DNA of 64,000 nt from Torymus aiolomorphi. Lineage: Eukaryota; Arthropoda; Insecta; Hymenoptera; Torymidae. Shown here in pieces: positions 31,155-51,176 of the stretch. The notes under the pieces were generated by a model. That model was not told the origin of the DNA, ran no database searches, and was given only the letters and a program-made list of their open reading frames with translations. The position numbers and the translations under genes were made by a program. The first letter of the stretch is position 1; every line of letters begins with the position of its first letter. The DNA lies in the NCBI GenBank assembly GCA_036365515.1, contig CM070874.1, forward strand, positions 174,381,797 to 174,445,796, given 5' to 3'.

Positions 31155-32378
31155 TTCCATCAGGCCGCGATTAAGTAATCTTCGCATGTATCTGGCAGAG
31201 AATCCTTCCTACCACCTTTTTGGTACAGCGGAGTCATGGCTGGGCCCGGTTGTCGAGGACAGCCTCATTCAGATAAAGGGCTACACGGTAATTAGGTAGG
31301 ATCGCAATATAAATGAGGGCGGGGTCGCCCTGTATGTGCGTGATGACTTTAACATCACGATATTGACATCATCCAGTACCCTTGGATGGGGAAGGCCGGA
31401 GATTCCCGAGTATTTATTTTGTCGCGTACAGAAGGGTGTTTCTCCCCCCGTTTTGGTTGGTGTCATTTATAGACCTCCACATATTGCTATGCAGAAAAAC
31501 ACCGATCTTTTGGATGATTTGCGCGATCTTTCCAGCGAGTATAGCCACAAATTCATCATGAGGGATCTGAATGCTGAACTGTCGTCGACAACTGATGCCG
31601 ATGCATATACTATTAGGAATTTGGCTAAAGAGTTGTCTCTGCAAATTGTGCAGCGTGGACAAACCCACCACAAAACTCCAACATCTCACATATGGATTGA
31701 TTTGATCCTTGTAAATGATAACGATGAGTTGCTGGGTCACGAGAATCAGTGCTTGCCCAGTTTCGGCAAACATGCCATCATAGATGCTACCATCTCATAC
31801 TACGTGCTAGCCCCAGTAAAAGATTCTTTCTCTTAGAGGGATTACAAGAACATATGTCCTGCCACTCTGAATTCACTGCTCGCACGCTGCGACTGGGTCA
31901 GCATGAGTTCAATTGAATCTGATCTGGAGGAGGCTTTAGATAATTTAAACTCGAACTTGAACATAGCTGTCGATCAATTAGCACCTTTAAAAACTGTGAA
32001 GCCCAAAAAAAATATGCTTCTTGGCTTGGTCCTGAGCTGAGGCAGCTTATTGACAAACGTAATGCAACTCACAGGCGCTACAAGCGTTACTTCAGCTCAG
32101 TAACGAGGTCCACTAGCGCATTGATCAAGAGCGTAACTCTTTCTTTCATAAACATCTCTCAGATGCCCTTAATGCTAACAAGGATATATGGTAGGAAATG
32201 CGCAAGCTCGGCCTCCTACCAAAGCGAAAAGACGAAGACTTGCACGGCCTTACACCGGGGGAGTTGAACGCTCATTTTGCCGGGATATCCGTGTCCCTCC
32301 ATGAAAACATAGAAGATGCAATGGACACCATACTATCTGTAAATGAGGAGGGTTTCTCTTTTAAACCAGTTGTTCTAA
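31155..32378 (+). pseudogene. LINE B ORF2, endonuclease half
   Basis: The apurinic-type endonuclease is readable in frames around 31155-31836: GTAESWLG, VALYVRDDFN, VGVIYRPPH, RDLNAE at the catalytic Asn/Asp box, and HIWIDLILVND. A stop follows at 31834, then the linker (RQLIDKRNATHRRYKRYF; EMRKLGLLPKRK) up to FKPVVL at 32375. The reading frame is cut there by TIR element 1 at a TAA site and resumes at 41147 in RT. The catalytic box begins RDLN where GDxN is usual. Confidence 0.75.
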
Positions 32379-32859
32379 CAAGGAAAGGGCCCCAGATGTA
32401 CCTCACCGATTTCCTTCAAATTTTGATATGTTGTAGTACATACAAAAATATTTGACACGTGTTATTTTTACGTGCCCATACGCTCATTTAAGGGGTGAAA
32501 ACCACCCTTAAAATTCACCCCCAAAAACAGTTTTTTTTTTTATATCTCCGGAACGAATTGTAATTTTTTGATGAAACAAAGTGGATATGATTCGCAATTG
32601 AAAAACGAATATTTGTGCAATATTTCGACCTAGAAGGGTAGCCTCCCTTATTTTTTATAAAAGAAAACCCTAAAATCTTGACAATGTTTTCGCTCAAAAA
32701 ATTACAAAATTGATTGAATCCTAAAAAAAAATAATTGTGTTATAAACAAATTAAAAAAATAAAGTTGAAGTGCCCCTTGTTTTACGGAAAATGCTTTTTA
32801 CACGGATATTAAATTATTTCAATATTAAATATGTATATGGGTAACTTCACGTCAACTGT

Positions 32860-34651: not shown

Positions 34652-34655
34652 CTAG

Positions 34656-35728
34656 TGTAACGCGTGTCTAGCCGCGATTCTAATCTACCGCGCGAAGGTA
34701 GTGAGCGCGCGCGCGCAACTCCTGCGCAGCCGAATCGAGGCGCGCCGCGCGTAGCGAATCGGTCTCGCGACGCGTAAAATGCCCGTCATCCGTCGCGAAG
34801 CTGCTAACCTGTTCCCGCGAGAAAAGGGAGCCATCTTCGTGTCTGCCGTCGCGCAAGTAGGATCTCCTCCGTGTCTTCGTGAGTTTACTTGTCTGCGCCG
34901 TCCTATCGTTTTGTGAGACCCCGCGAGTGTAGTGGAGGCGCCGCAAATAGTGGAGGCGCACACAAGAGAGACAGAGAGAGAGCGATACCGCGTAGCGTGT
35001 GCCACGAGCAGAACGAGCCTGCGAGCGAGGAGCCGGCAGCCAGCCCGCCTGCCGACCCAATACAGCGAGAGAGAGAGAGAGAGCGCAACTGCTGTGCGAA
35101 CGACAGGGAGCGAGAGGGAGAGTCGAGTGCACCAGCTGCTCCTTCCTAACGTAAGTTTTCTACTCTCCTCTTGCGGGTTCATTGTAAAGGCTCGCACGGA
35201 AATCGCCCCGTGCAAGCCTTCTGTGCCGTGTACGTGGGGGTGTGTGTCAGCCCGCCGTACTTTAACACCGCGCACGAAATTAGCAGCTTCGCCGCGCGCC
35301 GTGTAGTTCGCGCGTTTGAATATTATCGGTCGCGCGCGAACTAACTCTTTGTTCTAATCAGCACGTGCGTTGTGCTTGTAGAGATTAGTGATTGTAAATA
35401 TATTGTGATATCTAGTTACTCGTCGCGTTGTTCATTACAACCTGTCCTTCTCCCGGATACCGCCGCCTCCGCGGGAAAACGACTCCGCCAGTTGTTTTCA
35501 TATCTGAGCATAGCGGCCGCGCGCTTTACTCTTCGAGCGCGCGCTTTTCACTCAGCGATCCAATTAGTTGGAAAGCGAAGTTCGTGTGCGATCTTCGCGT
35601 TGTTTTCGAGATTCCAGGAGCAGATCCCCGGGCAAGTCATTTTAGTCTGTCACCCGCGGCACCGTGTTCTAGGGCATCGCTGGCCTGTGGCTTGTTGGGA
35701 TTTTCCCCCCACTAGCCATCCCGTTACA
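34656..35728 (+). repeat. Gypsy B 5' LTR
   Basis: 1073 bp, TG...CA, GC-rich with a (GA)n tract near 35065-35080. Confidence 0.92.
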
Positions 35729-35730
35729 AC

Positions 35731-35806
35731 TGGCGCCCAACGTGGGGCTCGAACCCACGACCCTGAGATTAAGAGTCTCATGCTCTACCGACTGAGCTAG
35801 CCGGGC
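35731..35806 (-). tRNA. Full-length tRNA-Lys(CUU) copy including CCA; reverse-transcription fossil, not a gene
   Basis: The minus strand folds as a complete tRNA: acceptor GCCCGGC/GTTGGGC, D arm GCTC..GAGC, anticodon stem TGAGA/TCTCA with loop CTCTTAA (anticodon CUU, Lys), T arm GTGGG/CCCAC with TTCGAGC, discriminator G and CCA. CCA is added after transcription and not encoded in eukaryotic tRNA genes, so this was copied from a mature primer tRNA. It starts 2 bp after the LTR, exactly where the primer-binding site (TGGCGCCCAACG) lies, and ends at pol. A tRNA finder will probably report it as a gene. Confidence 0.93.
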
Positions 35807-36877
35807 AAAGGGTTATTTCAATTTACAAGAATGCCCTATGGTCTTTCGTATGCCGGAGCGTCCTTCCAGAGGCTGATTGACAAAGTCATCGGCCCCGAAC
35901 TCGAACCTTTTGCTTACTCGTATATCGATGACATAATAGTAGTCACAGAAGCATTCGAGGAGCATAAAGAAGTTCTAAAAAGAGTTCTAGATAGGATAAA
36001 GGACGCGGGCCTCACAATAAATCGCGAGAAGAGTGTCTTCTGTCGCGATGAGGTCCAATATCTCGGGGTCATAGTAAATAGGGATGGTTTTAAACCAGAC
36101 CCCGAGAAAATAAAGCCCATTATGGAATATCCGGTGCCGAAAAACCTCCGTCAGCTGAGACGCTTCCTAGGAATGGCCTCGTGGTATAGAAAGTTTTTAT
36201 CAAACTTCGCCACAATTGCTGAACCACTGACCGAACTAACGAAAAAGGATCGGAAATACGAGTGGTCAACGGCACAAGAAGAGGCCTTCCAAAAACTAAA
36301 AGCGCTAGTTGCTTCTGCACCGATTCTCCACAGACCGGTATCTAACGCACAGTTCGTGGTGCAAACTGATGCGAGCGATACAGGACTTGGAGCGGTGCTA
36401 TACCAGATAATAGACGGCGACGAAAGAGTCCTAGAGTTCGCTAGTCGAACTCTGAGCGCGGCCGAGAAGAATTATAGTGTGACGGAACGAGAGTGTCTAG
36501 TAATTCTCTGGGCAATCAAAAAGTTCCGTCCGTATATAGAGGCCTATGACTTCAAGGTCATCACGGATCATAGCAGCTTGAAGTGGCTCCGTGATCTCCG
36601 AAACCCATCAGGCAGGTTAGCAAGATGGGCTTTGGAACTACAAAACCACAGTTTCACAGTCGAACACCGAAAGGGCTCTTTGAACAATGTCCCAGATGCC
36701 CTTTCGCGGATGTTCGAGGAAGAGGAGCCAGCGGTCGCCGCGTTAGAGCTCGAACGCGATACAAACGACCAATGGTACCTCGAAATTGTGAAAGAGGTTC
36801 AACAGCGGCCGCGAGACTTCCCCACGTTCAAGCTGGCGGGGGGAGACTGTACAAGTACGAACCTGATGAAGTCATAG
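35801..36877 (+). pseudogene. Gypsy B pol: RT (C-terminal part) and RNase H
   Basis: The frame picks up at codons for PGKG inside the RT palm, the first six bases being shared with the tRNA end, and runs to 36877. RT motifs: FTRMPYGLSYAGASFQRL and the active site YIDDIIV (YxDD intact), then QYLGVIVNRDGF. RNase H: QTDASDTGLGAVLYQ, ERECLVILWAIKKFRPY, ITDHSSLKWL. The upstream fingers/palm with the first catalytic Asp are missing. A frameshift near 36840 moves the integrase N-terminus to the frame read from 36625. Confidence 0.9.
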
Positions 36878-38303
36878 ACGAGTCTCTCGGCGACGATGAT
36901 GCATGGAAGTTAGCAGTCCCTCACGAAAAGCGACGCGAAGTACTGAGAGAATCCCATGACTTTCCAACTGCTGGGCACTTGGGCCGCGAGAAAACGCTAG
37001 AAAGAGTAAAGCGGAAGTATTATTGGCCACACATGTCTCGTGATGTAGCCAGATACGTGAGCCAGTGCCAAATTTGCCAGCAGTGCAAAGTCGAACAGCG
37101 CGCTCCAACAGGATTCATGGGACGCCGAATTACAGAGCGTCCATGGCAAATCGTGGCCAGCGACATTATGGGGCCCCTCCCAAAATCACGCACGGCCACG
37201 AATACATTCTCATATTCCAGGACTTGTTCACATGCTGGATTGAAGTAATTCCGATAAAAATGGCAGATGGTAAATCGGTAATTAAGGGACTCAACGAGCG
37301 AGTATGTCTGCGATTCGGAGTCCCGGAGGTGTTTCTCTCAGACAATGGTACTGAATTTAAAAATGCACCATTAGAGGCATTCTTAAAGGAGAGAAACGTG
37401 CATCACACGTTTACACCTCCGTATCACCCTCAGGCCAATCCTGTCGAGCGTGTGAATCGAACGGTGAAGACAATGATTATGTCTCACGCACAGGAAAATC
37501 ACCGGTCCTGGGATGAGAAACTGAATGAGCTGGCGTTCGCGTACAATACTGCCGAACACAGCTCCACAAAGATAAGTCCTGCCATGCTCATTTACGGCCG
37601 ACAACCTGACCCACCGAAGACACTAAGGCGGGAGGAAGACAGGTTAGCCGAAGAGCAAGGGCAGCAAGAGGCGATAAACAATTGGGTGGTACGTATGGAC
37701 AAGCTCCGCGAATTGCACGTTCGGGCGGCGGCCGACGCGCAAGCGGAGCAGGCGAGACAAGCCAAATATTATGACGCTCATCGTCGACCTCCAGAATTCT
37801 GTCTAGGCGATCGTGTATGGAGAGAGAATAAGGTACTATCCTCAGCAGCTGAGGGGATTTCTGCCAAATTAGCCCCGAAGTACGCGGGGCCCTACACGAT
37901 TGTGAATATTCTAGGCGAAAACACCTATGAGATCCAAGGTGAGGATGGTCGAACGATACGTCCCGTCCATGCGCAGCAACTTAAGAGATACGTCTCAGCA
38001 GAAGTAGCCCAGGCGCTACCAGCGAGGGACTCTTCAGCCGAACGGAACACGTCAGAGGGACACAGAGTTAGCCGGGGGAATGTACAGCCCCGGGCGACGG
38101 CTAAGAGGCGCGGTCCACCTCGTAAGACCGCGCTATTAGTTAGGCCAGGAAAGCGTGCGAGCGATGGCCGGCCTATGCGTGTGGCCGGTCCAACAGAACC
38201 CAAGCGAGGCCCAGGGAGGCCAAAGGGTTCGAAGAAGAAGCCCGTACCGGCTGATGCCGGACTAATTAGTCCTCGTAGAACCCGAGCGTATAAAAAGCAA
38301 TAA
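36840..38303 (+). pseudogene. Gypsy B integrase with AT-hook-like tail (one frameshift)
   Basis: The zinc-binding HHCC region (H..HLGREKTLERVKRKYYWPHM..CQICQQC) is in the frame ending at 37248. A second frameshift near 37185-37200 joins it to the 37065-38303 frame with the catalytic core. There the second Asp is in FLSDNGTEFKN and the Glu in HPQANPVERVNRTVK. Next come the GPY-type stretch (APKYAGPYTIVNI) and a basic tail. That tail has GPGRPKGSKKKP, matching the AT-hook core GRP flanked by basic residues. The first core Asp lies at SDIMGPLPK, beside the frame change. Intact otherwise, with a stop at 38301-38303. Confidence 0.88.
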
Positions 38304-38497
38304 TTGTGCCGTCCAACTTGTGTCGTACGTACTAACCTGTGTTCGTCTTAATTTTCCAGTCCTCAATCTCACTCCTCCCCGGGATCGATTTACCTGTTTC
38401 AGGACATGCAAGGCCTGACTCCCGAAATAGCGGAGACGGCGAAGAAGGTGATCGCTGGATTAATCCAGTGCAATCCTGACCCGCCGTCATCGATTTT

Positions 38498-39362
38498 TTG
38501 GAGCAGGTCGTGGAGGGCATCGACGCTGTGACACTGGCACCCCAGCCAGTGGAAGAGCCCTCCACCGTCATGATCGAGGAGATAGAGGCGCCGAAGCCAA
38601 GAAAGGGACCTTCGGAGCCGACCTGGGCAGAGGCCGGTCCCAGTCCGCTTCGGCGACCTCGTCCCCCGAAGGAGCAGCAGGAAAGCCGGGAAGAACGGCT
38701 TTCGCAAGAGGCGTCGGTCCGAGCCTCAGAGATGGCGCCGGAAGGAAACGCCGGCACGGCTCGGGCCGACGAAGAAAGTAAAGAGAGTTCTCTGACCCAG
38801 GCCCCCAAGTGGGCACCGAGTGATGAAGTCGGTGCGGCCTGGGTCCCAGTGGAGAAGGCCCTCGAGGAAGCGCGGCGCCTCAGCAAGTCCTCGCGCGCTG
38901 CGGAGGACGCTGCCCTGGCCGCACTGGAGGTCTTTCTCCAGTGCCACGATAATGCCGGCGAGCGGCAAGCCGGCAAATGGGTCGGAATGGCCCAAGGCCG
39001 GCGCGAAGAGCTCGCGGCCGCCGCAGAGGCCAGGGCCGCTAGGCTGCGCCGCACAGCCTTCCAAAAGGCGGAGGAGGCTCGCCTGGCTCGTGCGCAGGAG
39101 CGCATGGAAGAGGCCAGGCGAGCCAGGGAAAAGGCGGAGGAGACGGCGCGCCGGGTCAAGGAAGAGGCCCAGCGCCATCTCCAAAAAGAAGAAGAGCGCC
39201 TTAGGAGGGCGCTCGAAGAAGAGCGAGCGGCCCGGGATGCGCTCGACAGTAACGCGATCCCCCGGTGCTTCATGTGTGGCGAGCTTGGGGGTGAAAAAGT
39301 CTAAACATTGCCCCAACCAAGCTCGTCATAAGGGGCGCCGATCGTATTCCCGGGCCAGTTGA
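38498..39362 (+). pseudogene. Gypsy B ORF3: coiled coil with degenerate zinc knuckle
   Basis: An open frame of 268 codons in the position where env would be. The N-terminal half is acidic and Pro-rich. Residues about 120-255 are a long Ala/Glu/Arg coiled coil (RREELAAAAEARAARLRR; EEARRAREKAEETARRVKEE). The end is CFMCGELGG, then a stop at 39302, while the neighbouring frame continues KHCPNQARHKGRR to 39362. Together these look like a CCHC knuckle broken by a frameshift. Coiled coil plus knuckle suggest a Gag-like nucleic-acid-binding protein rather than an envelope, since no signal peptide or membrane segment is present. Confidence 0.6.
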
Positions 39363-39544
39363 AGAGGGGAGAGGCCCTGAAGTTTTTTTTATATTTTTTA
39401 ATAAAAATTAAAAAGAAAAACCTGTGACTCCGATTCTTCAATATTCCTTTTCGAACCTCCTTCTCCTAATCATTACTATCATATTAGTAGGTACGACGAC
39501 GGCCATGATTAGCAGAGCTGCTCACGGTCCCCTAAGCAGCGTCT

Positions 39545-39554
39545 GGCGGGGGGG
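39545..39554 (+). promoter_or_regulatory. Gypsy B polypurine tract
   Basis: GGCGGGGGGG directly abuts the 3' LTR, the place where plus-strand DNA synthesis is primed. Confidence 0.65.
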
Positions 39555-39962
39555 TGTAACGCGTGTCTAGCCGCGATTCTAATCTACCGCGCGAAGGTAG
39601 TGAGCGCGCGCGCGCAACTCCTGTGCAGCCGAATCGAGGCGCGCCGCGCGTAGCGAATCGGTCTCGCGACGCGTAAAATGCCCGTCATCCGTCGCAAAGC
39701 TGCTAACCTGTTCCCGCGAGAAAAGGGAGCCATTTTCGTGTCTGCCGTCGCGCAAGTAGGATCTCCTCCGTGTCTTCGTGAGTTTACTTGTCTGCGCCGC
39801 CCTATCGTTTTGTGAGACCCCGCAAGTGTAGTGGAGGCGCCGCAAATAGTGGAGGCGCACACAAGAGAGACAGAGAGAGAGAGCGATACCGCGTAGCGTG
39901 TACCACGAGCAGAACGAGCCTGCGAGCGAGGAGCCGGCAGCCAGCCCGCCTGCCGACCCAAT

Positions 39963-40010
<48 letters not shown>

Positions 40011-40651
40011 ACTGCTGTGCGAACGACAGGGAGCGAGAGAGAGAGTCGAGTGCACCGGCTGCTCCTTCCTAACGTAAGTTTTCTACTCTCCTCTTGCGGG
40101 TTCATTGTAAAGGCTCGCACGGAAATCGCCCCGTGCAAGCCTTCTGTGCCGTGTACGTGGGGGTGTGTGTCAGCCCGCCGTACTTTAACACCGCGGGCGA
40201 AATTAGCAGCTTCGCCGCGCGCCGTGTAGTTCGCGCGTTTGAATATTAACGGTCGCGCGCGAACTAACTCTTTGTTCTAATCAGCACGTGCGTTGTGCTT
40301 GTAGAGATTAGTGATTGTAAATATATTGTGATATCTAGTTACTCGTCGCGTTGTTCATTACAACCTGTCCTTCTCGCGGATACCGCCGCCTCCGCGGGAA
40401 AACGACTCCGCCGGTCGTTTTCATATCTGAGCATAGCGGCCGCGCGCTTTACTCTTCGAGCGCGCGCTTTTCACTCAGCGATCCAATTAGTTGGAAAGCG
40501 AAGTTCGTGTGCGATCTTCGCGTTGTTTTCGGGATTCCAGGAGCAGATCTCCGGGCAAGTCATTTTAGTCTGACACCCGCGGCACCGTGTTCTAGGGCAT
40601 CGCTGGCCTGTGGCTTGTTGGCATTTTCCCCCCACTAGCCATCCCGTTACA
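39555..40651 (+). repeat. Gypsy B 3' LTR
   Basis: 1097 bp. Longer than the 5' LTR mainly through a longer (GA)n tract at about 39967-40005. Confidence 0.92.
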
Positions 40652-40681
40652 CTAGTATAAATAAGAAACAAATTTATTTAT

Positions 40682-41143
40682 GTATACCTATTTAATATTG
40701 AAATAGCATAATATCCGTTTTAGGGGTAGTTGTAAAAAGCATTTTTCGTAACACACCGGGACACGTCAACTTTATTTTTTTAATTTGTTTATAATACAAT
40801 TTTTTTTTTTTAAGATTCAATCAATTTTGTAATTTTTTGAGCGAAGACATTGTCATAATTTTAGGGTTTTCTTTTATAAAAAATAAGGAATGCTACCCTT
40901 CTAGGTAGAAATGTTGCACAAATATTCGTTTTTCAATTGCAAATCATATCCACTTTGTTTCATCAAAAAATTCCAATTCGTTCCGGAGATACCGTTTTTG
41001 GGGGTGAACTTTAAGGGTGGTTTTCACCCCTTAAATGAGCGTATGGGCACATAAAAAAAACACGTGTTAAATATTTTTGGATGTACAACAACATATCAAA
41101 ATTTGAAGAAAATCGGTGAGCTACACCTGGGGCCCTTTCCTTG
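40682..41143. repeat. Right terminal inverted repeat of TIR element 1
   Basis: About 460 bp complementary to 32379-32840, sharing GGGTGAAAACCACCCTTAAA, CGAATATTTGTGCAA and TTCTTCAAATTTTGATATG in inverted form. Confidence 0.85.
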
Positions 41144-41146
41144 TAA

Positions 41147-42400
41147 GTGATGTAGTCATTGCAATCTCTCACTTCTCGCAGGCAAGAGGGTAGACGGGGT
41201 TCCCCAAAAGGTGATCGTAAAAGCTCTGCCGGTCATAGGCGAGTACTTGTTAAAAATCTTCAACTCCTTTTTCGCACAGGGAGTCTTTCCGGGCACTTGG
41301 AAGCGGGCACAGGTAATCGCGCTCAAGAAAAATGCAACCTCGTCTACGCCTTCGGATTTTCGTCCGATAGCGCTGCTTTGCTTCCTCTCCAAGGTGCTTG
41401 AAAAGATTGCCCACGACCAAATCACGGAGTACCTTAATAACAATAGCTTGCTCGACCTTTTCCAGGCCGGATTCCGTAAACATCATAGCACTCAGACGGT
41501 ACTTCTTAAGCTGACTGATGACATACGCATTGGCATTGATAACAGAAAACTGACGCTACTGTTACTCTTTGACTTCAGCAAGGCCTTTGATACCATTTCA
41601 CCGACAAAACTTCTGCGCAAACTCCGCAGGCTGGGATTCTCCAGGTCGGCTTTCCTGTGGATTAAAACATACTTACAAGGTCGTACCCAGATGGTTATTT
41701 CCAATAAAAGCGGAAATTCGGATTGGCTAGAAACTAATCTGGGAGTTCCGCAGGGTTCCGTCCTGGGTCCTCTGCTGTTTTCTCTCTACGTAGATGACTT
41801 ACGAGACAGACTCGACGATCATACTATCAAACATATATTTTACGCAGATGACCTCCAAATTTATCTACATACCACCAAGGACAAAATCTTGGAGGGTATA
41901 GCTCAGCTATCTGATGCAGCACGAATGGTGGCTGAATGGACTGAGAGCTCTGGGCTGCATCTCAATGCTGGCAAGACCAAAGCATTCCTATTTGGCTCGA
42001 GGACAGGTGTGAATTGGTCTGCCTTTTGGGGCGCTTGTTTCGTTCGGTAGCGAAGTCGTGAGTCTCGGTGTTACTCATGATAGCAAATTAACATGGAAAC
42101 TGCACATTCAACAACTTGCAAAGAAAGTCAACAAAGCCCTACATAGTTTGCGGTTTATTAGGGCATGTACCACCGAGACCCTCCGCAAAAGATTAGTTGA
42201 GTCATTAGTGCAACCGCACCTAGACTACTGTACGGTGGTATACATGGACGCATCCAATGATCAGCGTGAGAAAGTGCACCGATTAAGCAATGCATGTGTG
42301 AAGTATATCACTGGGACTAGGAAGGATGAGCACATAGCCCCCGACTGAAAACGCCTGGGCTGGCTCCGTACGGACTCACGCAGATGTTCTTATTCAATGA
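41147..42400 (+). pseudogene. LINE B ORF2, reverse transcriptase half
   Basis: RT motifs run in order: FPGTWKRAQVIALKK, DFRPIALLCFLSKVLEKI, LLLLFDFSKAFDTI (first Asp), LGVPQGSVLGPLLFSLYVDD and the catalytic FYADDLQIY (about 41848-41874). A frameshift near 42025-42055 moves to the C-terminal frame (SLGVTHDSKLTW; LDYCTVVYMDASNDQREKVH; KYITGTRKDEH), with a stop at 42346-42348. The 3' end is truncated near 42400, where a different element begins. The single early stop near 41195 and one frameshift show it decayed only moderately. Confidence 0.88.
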
Positions 42401-46121: not shown

Positions 46122-46253
46122 CGAGCGCGCGCAACTCCGGTGCAGCCGAAACGAGGCCTGAGTGCCAGCGCTCTTACGCTCCGCGCGTATCAAATCCGTC
46201 TCGGAACACTTAATATGCCCGTCATCCGTAGCGAAGCTGCTTAATACTTTCTG
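46122..46253 (+). repeat. Solo LTR (Gypsy B family), segment 2 of 4
   Basis: Continues the LTR at GAGCGCGCGCAACTC and runs to GAAGCTGCT, matching about 34700-34808 of the intact LTR. Confidence 0.7.
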
Positions 46254-46597
46254 CAGCATCCTTCTTATTAAGTTGAATCCACGCCGTAAGAGTTGTGCCT
46301 ACATTTTTAGTATTAATTTCATCTTCACAACCTTCTCTAAAGAACACTTTTTGTTCATTTTCGATATGAACAGCTAATCTATAAATTGTATGCGATAATT
46401 CACTCATTTATATTCATACAAGCGATGCATAGCTTATAGAGGACATACATATCTAGTTGTTAATATATTGTTTTATTTCATCATATGCAAGTTCTACATT
46501 ATCTATATCATTAGTATCTACATTGTCACCACCTGCAATTTTACTATGAATTTTCATTTCAATCAAAGCACAATCAAGACCTTTATAGCAATAGACA
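46254..46597 (-). pseudogene. Helitron Rep/helitron-like domain fragment
   Basis: On the minus strand, CYKGLDCALIEMKI and AYDEIKQYINN (about 46597-46453) precede MSELSHTIYRLAVHIENEQK and VFFREG (46407-46330) and TTLTAWIQLNKKD. This is the order of the Helitron region joining the Rep domain to the helicase, where YKG...DEIKxYxDARY and HxIxRLxVHLxxxQxVxF are conserved. Stops separate the pieces. It lies inside the solo LTR. Confidence 0.65.
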
Positions 46598-46911
46598 CAT
46601 CGGTATTCGGCAGAGGAGAAAGAGAGAGAGATAGGGGGGGAGGAAGAGGCAGCAACTACTGTGCGAGCGACAGAGAGCGAGAGAGAGAGTCGACTGCACC
46701 GGCTGCTCCTTCCAAACGTAAGTTTTCTGCTCTCTTCTCGGGTGTTTATTGTAAAGGCTTGCACGGAAATCGCCCTGTGCAAGCTTTCTGTGCCGTGTAC
46801 GTGCGGGTGCGTGACAGCCCGCCGTACTTAACACCGCGCGCGAGAACAGCAGCTTCGCCGTGCACCGTAACGTTCACGCGTTTGAATCGTAACCGGCGCG
46901 TGCGAACTAAC
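46598..46911 (+). repeat. Solo LTR (Gypsy B family), segment 3 of 4
   Basis: Matches the intact LTR from its GA-rich part to GCGAACTAAC, including CGTAAGTTTTC and GCACGGAAATCGCC. Confidence 0.75.
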
Positions 46912-47984
46912 TTACAAGGGGAGGCAGGTGTGAATCACCGATTACCATGAAACTTTGCTGGTGAATATCGTGTCAAAAAATACACGACGTGCTTTTTATT
47001 TTTGCCAACTCGCTGGATTAGGGGGGTTAAAACCATCTCCGAATTAATAAAACTAGGTATTTTCGGCATTAAAAACGCATCAGTTTCAGATAGAAAATAA
47101 TAATAAATAATTATTATGATTATATGACTCGAAAGAGAAACAAAAAATATTCGTCACGAGTTTCTGATTATATTTCCTTCTAGTCTATATAGCGAGTAAA
47201 AACCGCCCTTACAAATACAAATATTCGGTGTCCAATTTCAATTTATTAACGCTATTCTCTCGCTAAAATCACATTTAAAAAAATGTTTTTAATAATTAGA
47301 CAAGCTTATCAAGTGGTGCCTCCCGCTTTGACCCTGGGGTCCAATTTGAAGGTCATTTCAAGGTCAACTTCGATTTTTTTTTTAATAGGAACCAATATTT
47401 TATTTACCTGACATAGACTGAAATTTTCTACGTTTAAATACGTCATTACGACCTTGGTCAAGGAAGTCCCAGAGGTTATTTCAAGGTCATAACAACGGGG
47501 GGCTGAGGAGGTCTTTTATGACAACAAAGTGGGGCTACACAATTAGGTCGTGAATACAGTTTACGGTACATGCTGCACGGAGTGAAGTCGATTATTTCCT
47601 CGAGTGATTAGTGTCTTATAGGCATCTGCGGGAATAATCACCAACTATACTTTCTTGTTGCATAAAGTATTAGTATTCGTGCTATAAGTATGACATTTCA
47701 AAAAAATCATTATTCACGGGCTAATGTTGATTTTTCTATTGATACATCATACGACTGTGATATACTATTTGTAAGCAGCTGACGCTGGAACCGAGTTATA
47801 ATTGATTTCGATTTCTGTTTATCCAAGTGTACACTAAAAATATTCGATACGTCCTGTTTTTATTCTTGCCATTTAAAAATAATTCTTAAAATCAACTGTA
47901 AAATATTTTTACTTTCCGAATTGCGGAATTATACTTTAGATAAATTTCAAGAAGCAATTGCCTTTAAAATAGCTGTCCACGATA

Positions 47985-49030
47985 TACACTTATAGAGATG
48001 GGCTCTACAAAAAAAAATGAGTTGAAAATGCCATGGTTTAAAGCATCTCGTTGGTGGGTATAGCAGTTTAAGTGTAAACACAATATTGTTTACAGAAAAA
48101 TAACTAAATTTGTTACTCATTCGGATGTGGATAACATGACAGATTTACAGTAACAATGCGAGAATTTTAGAAATGATGTTAGTGGATTAATTTCCCAATA
48201 CGGTGCACAAAAGGTTTTTAATTAAAATCAAAGTGGATTTAATTTGGAGATGCACAGTGGTAGAACACTGTGTTATGAAGGCGCAAAAGAAGTAGAATGT
48301 GTTGCTCAATCGCTTTCCTCTATAACACATAGTTACACAATACAAACGACTGTATCTGCGGAAGGAAAGTTACTATCACCTTTATTTATAGTTTAAAGGA
48401 AAAAAGTGGGATATTTGGACCACGTGTTATTGAAAATTTATTTGTACCAACAAATGTACGCGTTGAAGCATCAACCTCTGGAAGCATCAAACTTGGATAC
48501 AAGAAATATTTTACCACAGAGCGGAGACTCTCCAGTTCTATTGTTGGATTCATGGAGCGGACAACGTGAAAAAAACAGTAAAGGAGGTTATACCACCACA
48601 TGTTAACCTAAAGTTGAAAATAATACCGAAAGGCACAACAGGCATGATTCAGCCTTCAGATGTGTACGGTTTCCGTTTCTGGAAGAACTTTGTTAGAAAG
48701 TTATCAGATATAGTAATTTTACTCAATTACAATGTTAATTTGCATAAACGAAATAATATTATAAGAATACAATCTCTAACGCACAATCAGTTTTCTTCGC
48801 CAAGATTTCAGGACGTATTTAGATATGGATGGTAAAAAAGTGGCTATGCTGTGACTAAACCTATAAACTTCAAAAGTCCAGTTGAATATTGTTTTAATAC
48901 CGAACAAGAACCGATTTGTGACATATGTGGAGAAACAACAATAATAAGATGTGCATGGTTTAAAAAACTATTATGTTTTAAGCATTTCTTCATATATTTC
49001 CATTATTGTACAAAATATGTACCCTGAATT
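47985..49030 (+). pseudogene. DDE transposase of TIR element 2, multiply stopped
   Basis: Readable pieces in order: a C-terminal DNA-binding remnant (ITKFVTHSDV), the region around the first catalytic residue (NQSGFNLEMHSGRTL, where relatives have DQSGF, so the Asp is probably lost), then VAQSLSSITHSYTIQTTVSA and LLSPLFIV. Next come a frame containing LLLDSWSGQ (second acidic site) and IIPKGTTGMIQPSDVYGFRF, then NNIIRIQSLTHNQFSSPRF and a Cys/His tail (CDICGETTIIRCAW; CFKHFF). Stops and frameshifts occur throughout. Confidence 0.72.
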
Positions 49031-49179
49031 TATTATTCGTGTGAATAACCATATTCTTAATTTAATTTTTAGTACAGTATGCGTAAAATGCGATTTTACG
49101 CATTGTTTTTGGTGCGTAAAAAATTTTACGCACCCGGATGTGCAAATCACTATTTAAAATCTATTAAAAAATGTATTAA

Positions 49180-49640
49180 AAATAGTATATTATGCACCAA
49201 GGGAATAAAATGGGCTGTGTGCTCCCTGTGTGAGAGTTGTCGCCTGAGCGAAGCGAGGGTGACAAACGCGCAGGTTCGCACAACCCATTATATTCACGAG
49301 TGCAATATACGACTTTTTAACACAACTATCATAACATTCGTACTCGTTTCCCGCCGATAAGGAAAAAAAGGCTGCATATTGATTCCCTAACCTCACTCTC
49401 GTTTCCAGCGCAACGCACTGTTTGTACCCGAGCCGAAGGCGAGGGCACATGTGCATGGCGGTGGGGACTAGAGTGGGGGTAGGGAATGAACGTAGCACTT
49501 TTTTCCCACTTCGGCGGGAATAAAGTACGAACTTTATGATGGGGTGTGTTAAAAATAATGTTCGACACTTGTGCGTAAGAATTTCTCGACTTCATGTGAT
49601 CGCACCACACTCGGTGTGTAAAACCCTATTTTACGTACTA
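49180..49640. repeat. GC-rich repeat related to the 22.7-23.5 kb module
   Basis: Starts ATGCACCAAGGGAATAAAAT like the module at 22735/23089. Contains GAGCGAAGCGAGGGTGAC and GAGCCGAAGGCGAGGG and ends with ACACTCGGTGTGTAAAACCC. Non-coding. It lies within TIR element 2. Confidence 0.45.
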
Positions 49641-50790
49641 GTATCGAAAAATACTGTAACAGTATAGATATAGATAGTTATGTAAACATGGTATATTTTT
49701 CTTGTGTAACGAATTTATTTATAAATATAATAAAGTATGGATAAAATTTTGAACTGCCATGTCTTTGATTTTTGATAATTTTAGGATTTAATTTATAACT
49801 ACTTATAATCTTGCTACAAAACCTACGGAATAAAGCATGTTATTTTAACTGCGAAGGATCAATAATTATTCATATCATACAAGTAGTAAAAAATTACAAT
49901 TTACGAAAAAATTTTGCTGGATCTATACTTTATATCTGATTTAAAATTTCGTGTCAACACAAATAATTTTCTAGATTTCACTTATTAAAAAAACTATTGG
50001 TATTAAATAGTAGATGTATGCAATGGTAATATTGTAGTCAAGATCGAGTATCATTATGATGAAGGTTAAATCTCCGCATGATCCAAAATCGATGGCGTGG
50101 ACGTTGCGAACTTCAGATAACCTTGAGATGTTAGGTAAAATGAGGCCCTTTGCCACGATTTTTAACTCCTGCAATCTCCGCTAACGTAAATTTTTCTTAA
50201 ACACCATATTGTCACAATTTAGTGTTGAAAACTATCAGTGATTTTGAAATGAGCCCTGGGGTCTGCTTGATAAGAATATAAAACATACAAGTCTCCATTT
50301 CCGCTAAAAAATAAGTTTTTATTAAAAAAATCGAAGTTGACCTTAAAATGACCTTCAAATTGGACCCCAAGGTCAAAGCGGAAGGCACCACTTGATGACC
50401 TTGTCTATTTATTAAAAACATTTGTTTAAATGTGATTCTAACGAGAGAATAGCGTTAATAAATTAAAATTGGGCACTGAATATTTGTAAGGGCGGTTTTT
50501 ACTCGCTATATAAACTCGAAGGAAAACAAATCAGAAACACGTTTCGAATATTTTTTGTTTCTCTTTCGAGTCATATAATCATAATAATTATTTATTACTA
50601 TTTTCTATCTGAAACTGATGCGTTTTTAATGCCGAAAATACCTATTTTTATCAATTCGGGGGTGGTTTTAATCCCCTAAACCAGCAAGTTGGCAAAAATA
50701 AAAAAACACGTCGAGTATTTTTTGATACTATATTCACCAGCAAATTTTTATGGTAATCGGTGATTCACACCAACCTGCCTCCTCTTGTTA

Positions 50791-51172
50791 GTGTAATTGA
50801 CAGCACTTGGGTGGTGCATGTAATGCTTTAGTTTAATATGCTGTGATATCTAGTTACTCGTCGCGTTGTTTTTTATACAACCCAACCCATCCTTCTCCCG
50901 GATAACGCCGCTTCCGCGGGAAAACGACTCCGCCGGTCGTTTTCATATCTGAGTGTAGCGGCCGGGTGATTTACTCTTCGAGCGCGCGTTTTTCACTCAG
51001 CAATCCAATAAGTTGGAAAGCGAAGACCGTGTGCGATCTTCCCGTTGTTTTCGGGATTTCAGGAGCAGATTCCCGAGCAAGTAATTTTAGTCTGACACGC
51101 GCGGCACCGTGTTCTAGGGCGTCGCTGGCCTGTGGCTTTTTGGGATTTTTCCCCAGAAGCCACCTCGTTCCA
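50791..51172 (+). repeat. Solo LTR (Gypsy B family), segment 4 of 4
   Basis: From GTGTAATTGACAGCAC through TGATATCTAGTTACTCGTCG to the LTR end CTCGTTCCA at 51172, followed by ATCC. About 10% diverged from the intact LTRs by eye, so it is much older than Gypsy B itself. Confidence 0.75.
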
Positions 51173-51176
51173 ATCC

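What the first reader, a model, noticed from the sequence alone, without database searches (positions are those of the whole stretch)
35729..35830. Fossil of whole-tRNA read-through: LTR, complete antisense tRNA-Lys with CCA, then mid-RT, joined at shared CCGGGC
Seen: 2 bp after the 5' LTR lies the complement of an entire 76-nt tRNA-Lys(CUU), CCA included. It is followed directly by RT codons for PGKG. The last six bases of the tRNA copy (CCGGGC, 35801-35806) are also the in-frame codons CCG GGC (Pro-Gly) expected at that RT position. Known: plus-strand strong-stop DNA normally copies only about 18 nt of the primer, stopping at a modified base (m1A58). Inference: the whole primer was copied, and the 3' end CCGGGC re-primed by microhomology on the pol minus strand instead of the primer-binding site, deleting leader, gag, protease and the RT N-terminus. 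This explains the deletion and the tRNA in one step.
Basis: partly seen in the sequence, partly recalled or inferred. Interest (0 to 1): 0.87.

Follow-up and report, generated by a model that had tools for sequence, protein, structure and literature searches.

The report
Whole primer tRNA fossilised in retrotransposon
A broken jumping gene carries a complete DNA copy of the cell's tRNA that primed its copying, and eleven other places in the same genome show a similar accident, often with a changed letter exactly where such tRNAs are usually chemically marked.

Summary
The window holds an integrated Ty3/gypsy-type element (LTRs 34656-35728, 39555-40651; TSD CTAG). Two bases after the 5' LTR lies a perfect 76-nt antisense tRNA-Lys(CUU) with CCA, joined to mid-RT. 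This is not the family's normal form: 19 of 19 readable other copies have a short PBS. It is not unique: 12 whole or near-whole tRNA copies, window included, follow the ends of four or five LTR families, with varied junctions. L001 has the same RT junction on another backbone (AU p=0.00028), so the mistake probably happened twice. The claim that intact RT reads CCGGGC is wrong: 28 of 28 read CCAGGC; the shared stretch is GCC[G/A]GGC, GGC exact. Best reading: the primer was copied whole, often misread at m1A58, and its end joined to internal cDNA through short homology. Main gap: no free tRNA-Lys(CUU) gene was seen, so a G58 isodecoder is not excluded.

The parts
34652..34655 (.). 5' target-site duplication CTAG
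34656..35728 (+). 5' LTR, TGTAAC...GTTACA, 1073 bp
   Evidence: 18 of 1073 substitutions and two indels against the 3' LTR
35729..35730 (+). AC spacer between LTR and primer copy
   Evidence: same spacer in other family members
35731..35806 (-). complete tRNA-Lys(CUU) copy, 76 nt with CCA
   Evidence: ARAGORN; Rfam
35749..35749 (-). position 58 of the tRNA copy (m1A58 site); reads A here, G or T in 7 of 12 long copies
35800..35806 (+). junction heptamer GCCGGGC; 28 of 28 other RT copies read GCCAGGC
   Evidence: best 3'-anchored site in L031's 5' part if G.T wobble counts, not if only exact matches count
35807..36874 (+). C-terminal part of RT, then RNase H
   Evidence: Pfam RVT_1, RT_RNaseH, RT_RNaseH_2
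36595..37245 (+). open stretch with integrase zinc-binding domain
   Evidence: Pfam Integrase_H2C2
37044..38300 (+). open stretch with integrase core and C-terminal domain
   Evidence: Pfam rve, Integrase_p58_C
39545..39554 (+). polypurine tract GGCGGGGGGG
39555..40651 (+). 3' LTR, 1097 bp
40652..40655 (.). 3' target-site duplication CTAG

Best explanation
The element was made in one faulty round of reverse transcription. Plus-strand strong-stop DNA did not stop at m1A58 of the primer tRNA-Lys(CUU) but copied the whole tRNA. Its 3' end (...GCCGGGC) then annealed not to the primer-binding site but to GCCAGGC in the RT gene (7 nt, one G.T wobble, GGC exact at the end) and was extended. This deleted leader, gag region and the RT N-terminus. 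The product was integrated normally. Similar accidents happened repeatedly in this genome, to several LTR families, with different joining sites, and probably twice at this same RT site. Shown: anatomy, TSDs, short PBS in other copies, 12 long tRNA copies, varied junctions, excess of changes at position 58. Inferred: the order of events, m1A58 bypass as cause of the position-58 changes, and annealing as the joining step.
For: Perfect 76-nt copy with CCA at the LTR. Of 20 other copies read (out of 38 that one search listed), 0 hold the tRNA 5' half and 19 of 19 readable ones have TGGCGCC(A)CAACGTTTT.... L001: same junction, own insertion site; no variant shared only by it and the window in 60 variable RT columns; AU test rejects them as a clade, p=0.00028. 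L026: whole tRNA joined to the leader before gag, TSD ATTT. Genome-wide, the 76-mer at <=3 mismatches gives 6 places and the 36-mer of the tRNA 5' half at <=2 gives 8 (window not listed); each, with flanks, follows an LTR end (for L096 an LTR-like end seen once). L098, L118, L126 are further near-whole copies. ARAGORN finds a tRNA-Lys(CTT) in 9 of 9 such loci given to it. Position 58 is changed in 7 of 12, positions 8-76 otherwise in 14 of 816; binomial P 3e-10. With wobble counted, the RT site is the best 3'-anchored match in L031's 4.3 kb. Literature passages: m1A58 makes the strong stop, unmodified tRNA is copied to its 5' end (PMC13191261); m1A followed by G is misread with low C signal (PMC4787781), as seen here (G and T, no C).
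Against: Only 3 nt are exactly identical at this junction and 2 nt at L026's. Counting exact matches alone, 11 sites in L031's 5' part end in longer ones (4-5 nt) and 65 in 3; in L043 an 11-nt match with four wobbles is longer; the 3' half holds two exact 6-nt sites. The window copy itself reads A58, so its own read-through need not have met m1A. L001 ties with L043 as nearest LTR to the window's, which common descent would also give. No free tRNA-Lys(CUU) gene was seen, so G58 could come from an isodecoder; L026 and L097 share a second change (C40G), which hints at one. L139, the only T58, is decayed around that site. The 12 copies may not all be independent events.
Confidence: 0.77

Rival explanations
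1. Two cDNA ends were joined rather than one strand re-primed: a minus strand broken in RT, and a plus strand ending in a whole tRNA copy, annealed by their 3' ends or were joined by end-joining before integration.
For: Exact junction homology is only 2-3 nt. Other loci are inverted or head-to-head: L097 with two LTR ends facing one tRNA, L060 and L080 (short PBS copies) running into antisense gag or pol, L126 into a second tRNA. Simple re-priming does not give these.
Against: Two junctions at the same RT heptamer on different backbones argue for pairing rather than random breaks.
Confidence: 0.3
2. One ancestral tRNA-bearing deletion derivative gave rise to both window and L001 by retrotransposition with recombination onto another backbone.
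For: Identical junction; L001 ties with L043 as nearest LTR to both window LTRs; retroviral-type recombination is frequent (general knowledge).
Against: No variant shared only by the two in RT, and no LTR base common to their four LTRs that is rare (<=8 rows) in the set; L001 carries its subfamily's variant 33 bp after the junction; clade rejected, p=0.00028; base 58 differs.
Confidence: 0.25
3. The position-58 changes come from a host tRNA-Lys(CUU) isodecoder with G58, not from reading through m1A58.
For: No host gene could be compared; two copies share C40G with G58.
Against: A58 is nearly universal in elongator tRNAs (recalled). One long copy, though a decayed one, reads T58 (L139), and shorter over-extensions also show plus-strand A, C and G there, which one isodecoder does not explain.
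Confidence: 0.15
4. A tRNA gene or tRNA pseudogene inserted beside the LTR, or the assembly is wrong.
For: A tRNA-like stretch at a junction is a usual suspect.
Against: The CCA end abuts the LTR end in the 12 long copies; TSDs of the three elements checked differ (CTAG, ATAT, ATTT). Eukaryotic tRNA genes do not encode CCA (general knowledge). No read data were available.
Confidence: 0.03

Closest known systems
Over-extended plus-strand strong-stop DNA in HIV-1 when tRNA-Lys3 lacks m1A58 (review PMC13191261, passages seen)
   Same: Plus strand copies the primer past position 58, with unmodified tRNA to its 5' end; stops at 55 and 54 also known.
   Different: There an in vitro and cell-culture product, described as not usable for transfer when it runs to the tRNA 5' end; here such products were joined elsewhere and integrated.
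Large deletions by strand-transfer errors in retroviral vectors (Pulsinelli and Temin 1991; seen only as title in the reference list of PMC9278108; content recalled)
   Same: Errors in strand transfer that give large deletions.
   Different: Vectors in one round of replication; whether whole-tRNA copies or a position-58 signature occur there I could not check. Paper not held.
tRNA-Gly copies beside HIV-1 and MMLV DNA (Gurgo and Franchini 2025, PMC12220202: abstract, section 14 and part 1 of 2 of the discussion read; Colicelli and Goff as told there)
   Same: Reverse-transcribed mature tRNA with CCA next to viral DNA, linked to deletions.
   Different: Outside the provirus or between LTRs of a circle, 4-5 nt missing at the tRNA 5' end, non-cognate primer; here the cognate primer, inside the element, integrated, and recurrent.
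Helenus TRIM elements (Kojima 2024, PMC10886601, abstract and outline read)
   Same: tRNA-like sequence in an LTR retrotransposon.
   Different: There the tRNA-like part lies within the LTR, proposed as a promoter; here it is antisense at the PBS and is a copying product.

Membership tests
Ty3/gypsy LTR retrotransposon | RT-RNase H followed by integrase | tested here: met
   Pfam RVT_1, RT_RNaseH, then Integrase_H2C2, rve
Ty3/gypsy LTR retrotransposon | LTR pair, TSD, PBS position, PPT | tested here: met
Ty3/gypsy LTR retrotransposon | gag upstream of pol in non-deleted members | tested here: inconclusive
   A start codon follows the leader in 20 of 20 5' parts read; the protein was not tested by domain search
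Osvaldo-like group (tRNA-Lys primer, recalled) | tRNA-Lys PBS | tested here: met
   PBS matches tRNA-Lys(CUU) over 12-13 nt in 4 of 19 copies, interrupted by an extra A in 15 of 19
Osvaldo-like group (tRNA-Lys primer, recalled) | position in an RT tree | not tested
   no tree with named clades was made
Whole-primer read-through product | tRNA complement starts at CCA and reaches the mature 5' end | tested here: met
   the last 2-3 nt are shared with the target, so the very end is not provable
Whole-primer read-through product | absent from non-chimeric members | tested here: met
   0 of 20
Whole-primer read-through product | identity to the host's primer tRNA gene | tested here: inconclusive
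   no free gene found at <=2-3 mismatches

The most novel reading that the evidence does not exclude
This genome keeps a fossil record of an RNA modification. Across four or five LTR families, reverse transcriptases copied the primer tRNA-Lys(CUU) through m1A58 in vivo, leaving G or T at that one position, and the whole-tRNA ends were rescued by short-homology joins, twice at the same RT heptamer. The weak, interrupted PBS of the main family may make this second strand transfer especially error-prone.
Probability: 0.55. Interest if true: 0.82.

Novelty: new variant of a known kind. Interest (0 to 1): 0.72.

Why it matters
Plus-strand read-through of the primer is described from HIV-1 experiments as a product that cannot go on to transfer. 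Here it is found integrated and recurrent in a natural genome. If the position-58 pattern holds, integrated elements record which primer tRNAs were methylated and how retrotransposon RTs misread m1A in living germ cells. That makes the role of m1A58 as the strong-stop signal testable in genome sequences of many animals, and it gives a concrete route for the birth of deleted, non-autonomous elements.

Tried and rejected
A scan of viral contigs (IMG/VR) confirmed no relative. The protein search gave relatives (ants, Trichogramma and others by name) but no DNA. The idea that the whole tRNA is a normal long PBS was raised by L026 and rejected when 20 other copies were read. The idea that L001 is a duplicate of the window locus was rejected by its different flanks and TSD. 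A six-base perfect microhomology was rejected. Of the 225 places that one search counted, 100 were listed; I fetched 79 of these with small flanks (39) and held or fetched 4 more otherwise (L001, L026, L094, L097); 17 listed and 125 unlisted places were not seen. Of the 39, two are long tRNA copies (L058, L062, fetched again as L098, L097); of the 40, two (L118, L126); the rest end their tRNA match at about 18-26 nt or carry other families' leaders. LTR pairs were checked only for window, L001 and L026; other 'families' rest on the last 15-25 bases. Literature searches; I saw no report of integrated whole-primer fossils or of a position-58 signature in those listings, which does not prove there is none.

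Full report
What is there. The window lies at C2:174381797-174445796 of a 1.08-Gb assembly, probably an insect, since many named protein relatives are from insects such as ants and Trichogramma wasps. At 34656-40651 is an LTR retrotransposon: LTRs of 1073 and 1097 bp, ends TGTAAC...GTTACA, TSD CTAG, a PPT GGCGGGGGGG, and RT (C-terminal part)-RNase H-integrase domains. Its LTRs differ at 18 of 1073 aligned sites, so it is not young; its reading frames are broken.

The tRNA. 35731-35806 is the reverse complement of a 76-nt tRNA-Lys(CUU) with CCA. With 1.7% LTR divergence, no decay in 76 nt is unremarkable (my estimate: about 0.6 changes expected since insertion).

Is it normal for the family? 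One search listed 38 other RT-bearing places without the tRNA beside L001 and L026. The 5' parts of 20 were fetched. In 19 the LTR end and PBS could be read, and all 19 have TGGCGCC(A)CAACGTTTTGGG..., a PBS matching the tRNA for 12-13 nt in 4 and interrupted by an extra A in 15. In one (L037) no PBS was found in the stretch. None of the 20 contains the tRNA 5' half. About 0.9 kb of leader and a start codon follow.

The junction. 28 of 28 other RT copies, and that of the L026 element, read GTG CCA GGC AAA GGG (12 of the 28 were also printed with context; all), not CCGGGC. The tRNA copy therefore supplies the G, and the target supplies AAAGGG; GGC may come from either. Counting G.T wobble, the heptamer pairs over 7 nt, and in L031 it is the best 3'-anchored match between LTR and RT. 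This ranking depends on wobble: by exact identity 11 sites in L031 have 4-5 nt and 65 have 3; in L043 an 11-nt match with four wobbles is longer; the internal region downstream holds two exact 6-nt matches. So pairing can explain the site but does not single it out.

A second event at the same place. L001 on C1 has LTR, whole tRNA and the same RT junction, in its own insertion site (flank differs; TSD ATAT, though within an AT repeat). It shares no variant only with the window in 60 variable columns of 27 RT rows (four of the 29 loci tried gave no match of 1200 bp and were dropped; L054 and the window were added). It carries its subfamily's variant already 33 bp after the junction. Holding the two together costs 25.9 log-likelihood units (AU p=0.00028). 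Their LTRs (last 600 bp) are of one class; no rare base is common to all four, but L001 ties with L043 as the nearest LTR to the window's. Independent events are the simplest reading; recombination within 33 bp is the alternative.

Other events. L026 on C2: whole tRNA joined to the leader just before gag (normal GAAGCGC|ACAGCC; here CCGGGC|ACAGCC; 2 nt exact), TSD ATTT. A 76-letter search of the whole genome with up to 3 mismatches gave 6 places, and the 36-letter 5' half with up to 2 gave 8 (the window itself is not listed by this tool). All of these, once read with flanks, directly follow an LTR end, in L096 an LTR-like end seen only there. With near-whole copies L098, L118 and L126 this makes 12 long copies, window included. 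ARAGORN finds a tRNA-Lys(CTT) in 9 of 9 of the fetched loci given to it. By the last 15-25 nt of the LTR they fall into four or five families: A (window, L001, L026, L098, L140, one side of L097), B (L095, other side of L097), C (L094, L118, L139), D (L096), E (L126). Junctions vary: RT, leader, gag-like (L140, judged by eye), LTR end region (L095, L118), a second PBS (L098), a facing LTR (L097), a second tRNA-like 3' half (L126); for L094, L096 and L139 the joined sequence was not identified.

Position 58. In tRNA sense, base 58 is A in 5 copies (window, L094, L096, L118, L126), G in 6 (L001, L026, L095, L097, L098, L140) and T in 1 (L139, which is decayed nearby). All other positions from 8 to 76 together show 14 changes in 816 (positions 1-7 left out because junction sequence mixes in there). 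A first count on 10 copies gave P 2.8e-8, that on 12 gave 3e-10. Position 58 is m1A in retroviral primer tRNAs and is the plus-strand strong stop (PMC13191261 passages); this was not shown for this host. m1A with a 3' G, as here, is misread with little C (PMC4787781 passages). Shorter over-extensions in the PBS sets show plus-strand C, A, G or T there, but some of these are leader lineages that may have been inherited.

What weakens this. An isodecoder with G58 is therefore not excluded, and the C40G shared by L026 and L097 may point to one. The binomial P assumes independent copies.

How it works, shown and inferred. Shown: short PBS in non-chimeric copies, whole or near-whole primer copies only in aberrant ones, internal junctions, normal integration for the three elements checked. 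Inferred: plus-strand synthesis through the tRNA, bypass of m1A58, and annealing of the exposed tRNA-copy end to internal cDNA. The inverted and head-to-head loci suggest that joining of two cDNA ends also takes place. The interrupted PBS of family A may favour failure of the regular transfer; this was not tested.

Novelty. Parts of this are known: over-extension in HIV-1, deletions by transfer errors in vectors (title seen, content recalled), tRNA-Gly copies beside proviruses (PMC12220202). I saw no report of integrated whole-primer fossils or a position-58 signature in searches, which cover only open-licence papers. I class it as a new variant of a known kind.

Noticed in passing
window 38480-39301: ORF after integrase with a long charged, coiled-coil-like stretch and a CCHC-like knuckle at its end (by eye); no Pfam match and only one relative in the protein search (P0121, 65%).
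   Followed up: partly
window 46122-51173: A related LTR (about 85%) split by an insertion of about 3.9 kb whose ends are inverted repeats (46910-47402 and 50305-50792, 89%); no PBS follows it.
   Followed up: no
window 32375-32837 and 40683-41147: Inverted repeats (88%) on both sides of the element, and a hairpin-like pair at 32860-33130/33349-33618 (97%).
   Followed up: no
G000: No free tRNA-Lys(CUU) gene was found in the assembly at <=2-3 mismatches; the matches found are LTR-linked.
   Followed up: partly
L126 (C2:23873854-23874007): LTR end, near-whole tRNA-Lys, then the 3' half of another tRNA in sense with CCA (tRNA-Glu by recall), then what looks like an LTR end in reverse: two primed cDNA ends joined head to head.
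   Followed up: partly
L063, L070, L076, L069, L073, L083: Family A copies with the PBS over-extended to about tRNA position 55 before the normal leader; plus-strand base at 58 is A in three and C in three.
   Followed up: partly
P0065: A gypsy-type RT filed under a Rickettsia endosymbiont assembly; probably host DNA in that assembly.
   Followed up: no
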